The notes under the pieces: model-generated
What the model saw: only the letters and a program-made list of their open reading frames with translations
Databases searched by the model: none
Told to the model about the DNA's origin: nothing
Shown: positions 5,567 through 6,006 of the stretch, piece after piece
How the letters are laid out: each line of letters opens with the position of its first letter
How positions within the stretch are numbered: position 1 is the stretch's first letter
Translations under genes and position numbers: made by a program
DNA from: Candidatus Geocrenenecus dongiae
Lineage (GTDB): Archaea; Thermoproteota; Nitrososphaeria_A; Caldarchaeales; Wolframiiraptoraceae
Assembly: GCA_023267855.1 (NCBI GenBank)
Contig: JALNLN010000005.1
Span: 1 to 64,000, forward strand
Direction: 5' to 3'
DNA: 64,000 bases

Positions 5567-6006
5567 TTACTTTAACGGGACATACATAGAACTTCCCGCA
5601 CATCCTCGTATAAGGATGTGTTTCGGGTCGCCCCGACCCCTGCTCTTCCATGTTTTACTTGTTTACATGTTATTGCGAATTCTCCTAGTCTATGTCCTAT
5701 CATTTCTGGTCTTATCTCTACTGGTATGAACTCTTTACCATTGTAGACGTGTATTGTTAGTCCAACCATTTCTGGTAGTATGACCATGTCTCTTGCATGT
5801 GTTTTTAATGGTTTTCTAGGTGTCTGCCCCTTCTTCAACATCATTTTGTATTCTTTAATTTTTTCTAGTAGTTTAAGCTGTGCTGGTGTTAATCCTCTTT
5901 CCAGACTTCTCCTCGCTCTACTTGGAAGCAGCTTAATCACCTGATCCATACTCATCTGCTGTAGTTGGTCTAGCGTGTACCCTCTGTAGGTAAATTCTCT
6001 AGGCAT
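5567..6006 (-). CDS. rps19: Ribosomal protein uS19, interrupted by a 29-nt intron
   Basis: Small-subunit head protein. The body is typical of archaeal S19: LPSRARRSLERGL, PLKTHARDMVILPEMVGLTIHVYNGKEF and HRLGEFAITCKQVKHGRAGVGATR. Read straight through, the protein then leaves the family sequence (NTSLYEDVREVLCMSR, stop at 5572). Removing 5593-5621 joins 6006-5622 to 5592-5567 and gives GATR-SSMYVPLK-stop, the expected archaeal uS19 C-terminus, for a 136-residue product. The join falls within codon AGT. It is the last gene of a fragmented S10-type cluster, downstream of uL2 and a small ORF. Confidence 0.9.
5593..5621 (-). other. Candidate archaeal pre-mRNA intron (bulge-helix-bulge) in uS19
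   Basis: On the minus strand the order is CCCG (5627-5624), bulge AAA (5623-5621), 8-bp inner stem CACATCCT/AGGATGTG (5620-5613 with 5606-5599), 6-nt loop, CGGG (5598-5595), bulge AAG (5594-5592). CCCG pairs with CGGG, so two 3-nt bulges flank a 4-bp helix, the exact substrate shape of archaeal splicing endonuclease. Cleavage after the second nucleotide of each bulge removes 29 nt and restores the conserved protein end. The outer exon-exon helix is weak, as in relaxed BHB variants. Confidence 0.85.

What the first reader, a model, noticed from the sequence alone, without database searches (positions are those of the whole stretch)
5567..5640. 29-nt bulge-helix-bulge intron in the ribosomal protein uS19 gene
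Seen: the minus strand shows CCCG, AAA, an 8-bp stem with 6-nt loop, CGGG, AAG, so two 3-nt bulges flank a 4-bp helix. Read without splicing, uS19 ends in non-family sequence; cutting after position 2 of both bulges removes 29 nt (not a multiple of 3) and gives GATR-SSMYVPLK, the expected archaeal uS19 end. Known: archaeal splicing endonuclease cuts this shape in pre-tRNA, rRNA and a few pre-mRNAs such as cbf5. Inference: essential ribosomal protein synthesis here depends on mRNA splicing, and unspliced mRNA would make a 144-residue variant with an altered tail. I know of no described uS19 intron.
Basis: partly seen in the sequence, partly recalled or inferred. Interest (0 to 1): 0.95.

Follow-up and report, generated by a model that had tools for sequence, protein, structure and literature searches.

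The report
Tiny intron inside archaeal ribosomal-protein gene
In an archaeon of a probably heat-loving group, the gene for the ribosomal protein uS19 carries a 29-base insert that likely has to be cut out of the messenger RNA by the enzymes that splice tRNA, which would make ribosome production there depend on mRNA splicing, something reported so far for very few archaeal genes.

Summary
The only uS19 gene of this Geocrenenecus-type (Caldarchaeales/Aigarchaeota) genome is interrupted, eight codons before its end, by 29 nt. Unspliced, it encodes a 144-aa protein with a foreign tail. Cutting after nucleotide 2 of both 3-nt bulges restores GATR-SSMYVPLK; the matching C-terminus is uninterrupted in 38 of 41 same-class relative matches (one is cut by a contig edge, two end one residue short). 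Central 4-bp helix, 8-bp stem and 5' bulge are exact; the 3' side is relaxed. A competing fold wins at 37 C; the bulge-helix-bulge fold is the minimum at 60-80 C, with a share near 0.2. A second, 83% identical uS19 (P0002; protein only) shows the same 29-nt interruption: its tail can hide SMYVPLK-stop at one offset only, and its codons allow all 12 helix pairs together (0 of 1000 shuffles do). The genome encodes two EndA-type proteins, an RtcB ligase, and tRNA introns of 13-42 nt. The two intron-bearing uS19s are not sisters, so the intron is patchy. Splicing itself was not observed. This is a new member of the BHB pre-mRNA introns, known from cbf5; the listings of my paper searches showed none in a ribosomal-protein gene.

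The parts
5622..6006 (-). rps19 exon 1 (codons 1-128 plus the first base of the Ser codon)
   Evidence: ORF; PF00203 hit; alignment with relatives
5593..5621 (-). 29-nt intron ACACATCC...GCGGGAA
   Evidence: absent from the 50 fetched relative loci; excision restores GATR-SSMYVPLK
5567..5592 (-). rps19 exon 2 (GT + 7 codons + stop TAA)
   Evidence: 21 of its 26 nt identical in one run to the congener G003 (5567-5587)
5624..5627 (-). CCCG, 5' strand of the 4-bp central helix (in exon 1)
5621..5623 (-). AAA, 5' bulge; predicted cut between 5622 and 5621
5599..5620 (-). inner hairpin, 8 bp (9 with U-G) with 6-nt (4-nt) loop
5595..5598 (-). CGGG, 3' strand of the central helix (in the intron)
5592..5594 (-). 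AAG, 3' bulge; predicted cut between 5593 and 5592
   Evidence: part of a 12-nt internal loop in the energy model
5629..5635 (-). CGGGGCG, 5' strand of the 7-bp outer helix (partner 5576-5582)
   Evidence: minimum-energy fold at 60-80 C
5636..5647 (-). AAGAGCAGGGGT, 5' strand of a 12-bp exon/3'UTR closing stem (partner 5556-5567)
   Evidence: 12 Watson-Crick pairs; the 49 relatives measured have 4 to 9, though with G-U counted two of them reach 12 and 14
5556..5567 (-). ACCCCTGCTCTT, 3' strand of the closing stem, beginning in the stop codon
3736..5037 (+). 433-aa LAGLIDADG_3 protein, convergent neighbour of rps19; possible but unproven link to intron mobility
   Evidence: PF14528 E=2.5e-6; of 22 family genomes only the own one encodes it, besides two weak 23-27% matches in G012

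Best explanation
The 29-nt insert in rps19 is most likely a pre-mRNA intron of the bulge-helix-bulge class that is predicted to be cut out by the tRNA-splicing endonuclease and sealed by the RtcB ligase. Shown by sequence: the insert breaks the frame of the only uS19 gene; it has the central helix, 5' bulge and inner stem of the class; the class's cut rule restores the conserved family end; a second uS19 lineage has a tail that fits an interruption of the same length and place; the genome encodes two EndA-type proteins, RtcB and many tRNA introns of similar size. Inferred: the two EndA-type proteins form a heteromeric (alpha-beta)2 enzyme that cuts after nucleotide 2 of each bulge, RtcB joins the exons, the mature mRNA makes a 136-aa uS19, and uncut mRNA would make a 144-aa form with a different tail. 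The 12-bp stem between exon 1 and the 3' UTR would hold the two cut sites together.
For: Frame and tail: the own gene stops matching at residue 132 of 136, while 38 of 41 relative matches in the 44-genome class search reach 136 (one is cut by a contig edge, two divergent copies in G038 end at 135); 50 of 58 relative matches were fetched and all 50 read through without an insert, one of them cut by the contig end after SSMY, 4 of 4 congeners included. Second lineage: P0002 has the tail GATRNTSSYKGVRDVPCMSPSSS...; its codons allow SMYVPLK-stop at only one of the offsets tested, the one expected for a 29-nt excision, against 0 of 1500 random tails. Its unspliced peptide forces at least four base differences from the own exon 2 (Leu to Pro, Arg to Pro and loss of the stop in the unspliced reading), yet an identical spliced tail stays possible, in 2 of 165,888 codon strings. 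Its codons allow all 4 central and 8 inner pairs together; 0 of 1000 shuffles of its intron residues do. Machinery: two PF01974 proteins, one like Aeropyrum EndA 3P1Z, RtcB. ARAGORN predicts introns of 13-42 nt in 13 of 31 distinct tRNA genes on 30 of the 39 tRNA loci. Fold: z = -6.05; BHB is the minimum at 60-80 C. Literature: EndA cuts between nucleotides 2 and 3 of the bulges in cbf5 pre-mRNA (PMC2738675, Results part 1); (alpha-beta)2 EndA accepts relaxed motifs (PMC6379350, passages).
Against: No RNA or peptide data. At 37 C the BHB fold has a computed share of 0.04 and even at 60-80 C about 0.2. The 3' side is relaxed, not a clean 3-nt bulge with a stable helix. The DNA of P0002 could not be fetched; that its exon 2 differs from the own one only silently in the spliced frame follows from assuming the expected tail and is no independent proof, and 6 of 10 intron-encoded residues are shared with the own gene, which helps the pairing test. 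The ninth inner pair cannot form in P0002. P0002 is one member on one 2.4-kb contig. The P0001 cluster (5 members, 24 contigs, longest 165,118 bp) may also hold intronless alleles, because clusters are made at 90% identity.
Confidence: 0.92

Rival explanations
1. The insert is real but not spliced: the organism makes a 144-aa uS19 with a changed tail, and the hairpin is incidental.
For: The unspliced frame is open to a stop at 5572; the bare motif has a chance expectation of about 0.1 per 64-kb strand; at 37 C the BHB fold is not the minimum.
Against: The end of uS19 is uninterrupted in all 50 fetched relatives. In P0002 the unspliced tail is not kept (its stop is lost, Leu to Pro, Arg to Pro) while the spliced tail can be identical.
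Confidence: 0.04
2. Assembly or binning artefact: the 29 nt are not in the organism.
For: The genome is a 39-contig assembly and rps19 lies 5.6 kb from a contig end. P0005 shows that odd uS19 tails occur in the data.
Against: The insert forms a perfect hairpin plus a central helix that pairs with exon 1, and its cut sites fall on the family junction. P0002 fits the same 29-nt interruption in another lineage. The identical 144-aa protein represents a cluster of 24 contigs, the longest longer than the own contig (members not seen one by one).
Confidence: 0.02
3. Translational bypassing: the ribosome hops over 29 nt, as in phage T4 gene 60 (recalled), with no RNA cut.
For: A hairpin follows the take-off codon and the hop would restore the frame.
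Against: Take-off CGA and landing GGA do not match and no stop codon follows the take-off codon (sequence; the requirements are recalled). The central helix and bulges would be unexplained, and the genome has EndA-type proteins and RtcB.
Confidence: 0.02

Closest known systems
BHB introns of crenarchaeal cbf5 pre-mRNA (Desulfurococcales, Sulfolobales)
   Same: Protein-coding gene, unconventional BHB, cut between nucleotides 2 and 3 of the bulges, heteromeric EndA, presence and absence between lineages (PMC2738675: abstract, Background, Results part 1 of 2).
   Different: Other gene (ribosomal uS19), other lineage (Caldarchaeales), eight codons before the stop. The own TruB/Cbf5-type match lies in one open frame of 339 aa without a stop, so no sign of an intron there.
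tRNA introns of the same genome
   Same: Size range 13-42 nt as predicted by ARAGORN, and presumably the same enzymes.
   Different: No sequence similarity of the uS19 intron to any of the 13 found (140 of 200 shuffles score as high).
BHB site in the 5' UTR of HVO_1309 mRNA of Haloferax volcanii
   Same: mRNA substrate of EndA (PMC7714728, passages).
   Different: It lies in the 5' UTR and does not interrupt the coding frame.
rRNA BHB introns that carry LAGLIDADG genes (recalled)
   Same: BHB intron near a LAGLIDADG gene.
   Different: Here the LAGLIDADG gene is outside the intron, about 0.5 kb downstream on the other strand.

Membership tests
BHB (EndA-dependent) intron | 4-bp central helix between exon 1 and the intron's 3' end | tested here: met
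   CCCG/CGGG; can form in P0002
BHB (EndA-dependent) intron | 3-nt bulge on the 5' strand followed by an intron helix | tested here: met
   AAA then 8-9 bp
BHB (EndA-dependent) intron | 3-nt bulge on the 3' strand followed by an outer helix | tested here: inconclusive
   AAG is there, but only A-U and G-U follow; the model makes a 1 x 12 loop, then 7 bp: a relaxed motif
BHB (EndA-dependent) intron | Cuts between bulge nucleotides 2 and 3 give the exon junction | tested here: met
   Restores GATR-SSMYVPLK; the shared GAA at both edges leaves four equivalent junctions, the canonical one among them (sequence)
BHB (EndA-dependent) intron | Splicing endonuclease fit for relaxed motifs and an RNA ligase in the genome | tested here: met
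   Two PF01974/PF02778 proteins, one like 3P1Z and 2CV8; RtcB. Assembly and activity not tested
BHB (EndA-dependent) intron | Spliced RNA or in-vitro cleavage | not testable with these tools
   no RNA data at hand
Intron with homing endonuclease (mobile intron) | Endonuclease gene in or beside the intron that cuts the intronless site | tested here: inconclusive
   A LAGLIDADG gene beside rps19 is nearly unique to the own genome; target site unknown; not related at E <= 1 to the genus's tRNA-linked LAGLIDADG family

The most novel reading that the evidence does not exclude
The rps19 intron is a mobile BHB mini-intron that spreads by homing: the free-standing LAGLIDADG gene about 0.5 kb downstream cuts the intronless, highly conserved uS19 junction and repair copies in the intron and its neighbour. 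The codon after GATR would then be a homing hotspot in Geocrenenecus. This would explain why two intron-bearing uS19s sit on separate branches and why a third uS19 (P0005) leaves the family sequence at the very same codon with another tail.
Probability: 0.13. Interest if true: 0.87.

Novelty: new member of a known kind. Interest (0 to 1): 0.74.

Why it matters
A 2020 paper states that, besides its own 5'-UTR site, only one such BHB intron had been reported in archaea, the one in cbf5 mRNA (PMC7714728, passages). A second protein-coding host, and one in a ribosomal protein outside the crenarchaeal orders, would show that EndA-spliced mRNA introns arise more than once, that gene callers mis-annotate such genes (here a 144-aa, in P0002 a 188-aa protein), and that ribosome supply can hang on the tRNA-splicing enzymes. 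Because the intron is present and absent among close relatives, gain and loss of an archaeal mRNA intron can be studied within one genus.

Tried and rejected
Sequence origin from a tRNA intron of the same genome: no similarity. Other copies of the intron hairpin in the genome with up to 3 mismatches: none besides itself. A general link between LAGLIDADG genes and introns: in the own genome the 4 tRNA-linked LAGLIDADG genes all adjoin tRNAs for which ARAGORN predicts an intron, but my first Fisher test was built wrongly, as one of these tRNAs was not in its table; mended it gives p = 0.028, with further tRNA loci unexamined, and in congeners such genes also adjoin intronless tRNAs. The window's 433-aa protein matches none of that family at E <= 1, so I keep homing only as the novel case. 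P0005 tail: SSMYVPLK or shorter ends of it fit at none of the offsets tested, no relative of the tail in the protein collection but itself, only weak matches in two of five genus genomes (E 0.08 and 0.29); left unexplained. Viral contigs with the LAGLIDADG protein: none confirmed. The own TruB/Cbf5-type gene: one open frame, no intron seen.

Dropped rows: 8 of 58 relative uS19 matches were not fetched; L007 (contig edge) is missing from the stem count (49 of 50); nine of the 55 rows were left out (second matches in the same ORF, and the window's own hit). In one search the offset range was too short for P0001, so its empty lines there mean nothing; P0001's junction is shown directly by its DNA. 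Of the papers in the listings I opened eleven, in the parts named in this report; PMC12817955 and PMC13149111 (passages) and PMC12397907, PMC3655853, PMC8339473, PMC8707768 (passages) showed nothing on a ribosomal-protein BHB intron.

Full report
WHAT IS THERE. The window is the first 64,000 bases of an 85,557-bp contig of a 1.44-Mb, 39-contig genome, 97.9% complete. Four of the genomes held share its genus. Read straight it gives 144 aa ending GATRNTSLYEDVREVLCMSR.

THE INSERT. Excising 5621-5593 (29 nt) gives GATR-SSMYVPLK and a stop ending at 5567. Because both edges carry GAA before the cut, four neighbouring junctions give the same product; the canonical BHB cut (between nucleotides 2 and 3 of each bulge) is one of them.

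RELATIVES. Of 61 genomes searched, 57 including the own one have a uS19 match. I fetched 50 of the 58 relative matches; all 50 read through without an insert, one being cut by its contig end after SSMY; some phylum-level relatives have other, also uninterrupted, tails such as SSLHIAAK. In the 44 genomes held for the class, 41 relative matches were found besides the own: 38 reach the last residue, two divergent copies in G038 stop at 135, and G025 is cut by a contig edge; the own gene stops matching at 132. The three best-matching solved archaeal uS19 chains end in GATRSSMFVAVK. So the insert is a gain in a conserved place.

A SECOND CASE. In the protein collection the best hit after the identical 144-aa protein (P0001; 5 members, 24 contigs, longest 165,118 bp) is P0002: 83% identity over 99% of the query, 188 aa. 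Its tail GATRNTSSYKGVRDVPCMSPSSS... looks like the same unspliced intron; a second search with only the tail region ranked it next again. Codon logic tests this. Among the offsets tried, SMYVPLK-stop can be hidden in another frame of this tail only at offset 32, the value that a 29-nt excision at the same place demands; 0 of 1500 random tails allow it. The unspliced peptide of P0002 forces at least four base differences from the own exon 2 (Leu to Pro, Arg to Pro, stop lost), and still an identical spliced tail is possible, in 2 of 165,888 codon strings. Those two strings differ from the own exon 2 at five bases, silent in the spliced frame; this silence follows from asking for the expected tail, so it shows compatibility and not, by itself, selection. 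The four central and eight inner pairs can all form together in P0002, while 0 of 1000 shuffles of its ten intron residues allow that; 6 of these 10 residues are shared with the own gene, so part of this is inheritance. One of the changes, Asp to Gly, would turn a U-A pair into U-G; the ninth inner pair of the own hairpin cannot form in P0002. P0002 is known to me only as protein, from a single 2.4-kb contig.

STRUCTURE. The 116-nt region folds far better than shuffles (z = -6.05), but the minimum at 37 C is not the BHB fold: the stretch before CCCG pairs back on it and CGGGA takes UCCCG. Constrained folding puts BHB 1.4 kcal/mol above this at 37 C (share 0.04); at 60, 70 and 80 C BHB is the minimum, with a share of 0.19-0.23. 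In that fold the 5' bulge is canonical; the 3' side is a 1 x 12 internal loop that contains AAG, then a 7-bp helix and a 12-bp stem between exon 1 and the start of the 3' UTR. The 12-bp Watson-Crick run exceeds that of the 49 relatives measured (4 to 9), and its duplex energy is the lowest (-33.7 against -29.6 for the next); with G-U pairs counted, however, L050 reaches 14 and L013 12. That the stem was gained with the intron is therefore only a hint. The motif alone would turn up about 0.1 times per 64-kb strand by chance; the weight of the case rests on the junction, the relatives and P0002.

MACHINERY. The genome encodes two PF01974/PF02778 proteins. The 180-aa one is close to the Aeropyrum EndA catalytic chain (3P1Z) and to 2CV8, and keeps a lysine in the segment after 'YGKPLGI' aligned to Aeropyrum EndA; that this segment is the crenarchaeal-specific loop is recalled, while PMC6379350 (passages) says that such a loop with its lysine gives (alpha-beta)2 EndAs broad specificity. 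The other protein is a likely structural subunit (its role is inferred). RtcB is present. ARAGORN in intron mode predicts introns of 13-42 nt in 13 of 31 distinct tRNA genes on 30 of 39 tRNA loci. So enzymes that cut and join introns of this size are predicted to be at work in this cell.

HISTORY. On a tree of 22 uS19 bodies (tails removed) P0002 groups with the intronless congener G003 (98/89), not with P0001, so at least two changes are needed: two gains, transfer, or an old intron lost more than once. P0005, 88% identical over 89%, leaves the family sequence at the same codon with an unrelated tail in which no SSMYVPLK end could be placed; it stays unexplained. Downstream of rps19 lies a 433-aa LAGLIDADG_3 gene that of 22 family genomes only the own one has, apart from two weak matches in G012. 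In G003 the HEPN-nucleotidyltransferase pair that flanks it in the window lies directly beside intronless rps19 without it. This invites a homing model, my novel case, but no site was tested, and the protein is not of the genus's tRNA-linked LAGLIDADG family. In the same order, intron gain in a tRNA gene has been tied to a mobile element (PMC3293823, abstract and Discussion part 1).

NOVELTY. The cbf5 intron is the reported case of an archaeal BHB intron in a coding mRNA (PMC2738675, abstract, Background and Results part 1; PMC7714728, passages), beside a 5'-UTR site in Haloferax. My searches for BHB with protein-coding or ribosomal-protein genes, S19, archaeal pre-mRNA splicing, archaeal mRNA and Aigarchaeota introns gave listings in which no title or abstract start named a uS19 or other ribosomal-protein BHB intron; passages of three papers that held the words together concerned other things. 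Most hits were not opened and the library lacks most subscription papers. I file it as a new member of the BHB introns, with one feature (3' bulge and outer helix) inconclusive and RNA-level proof missing.

Noticed in passing
G000-G004 loci L170-L213, e.g. L173:1757-2974, L207:1659-2845: A multi-copy family of short LAGLIDADG_3 genes sits within 300 bp of tRNA genes: 20 of 34 short ORFs (350 aa or less, counted) in five genomes, 19 of the 20 convergent with the tRNA. Many are related to one another but none to the window's 433-aa protein at E <= 1.
   Followed up: partly
window 3736-5037: 433-aa LAGLIDADG_3 protein beside the intron-bearing rps19, nearly unique to this genome within the family.
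   Followed up: partly
P0005 (protein collection): uS19 of a Geocrenenecus-like lineage that departs from the family at the same codon (after GATR) with a 39-aa unrelated tail; perhaps a longer intron at the same site.
   Followed up: partly
window 2552-3291: HEPN and nucleotidyltransferase pair (likely toxin-antitoxin) next to rps19, conserved at 89% DNA identity beside rps19 in G003.
   Followed up: no
L034:2795-3036: In G003 the stretch between the nucleotidyltransferase gene and rps19 carries inverted repeats (GTAGTGTCC..GATAAG and its complement), like a small transposed element (seen by eye in the output).
   Followed up: no
window 6068-6310: 80-aa ORF between rpl2 and rps19 without a Pfam match; in G002 and G003 a trpB-like gene (my reading of the translation) sits between rpl2 and rps19 instead.
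   Followed up: no
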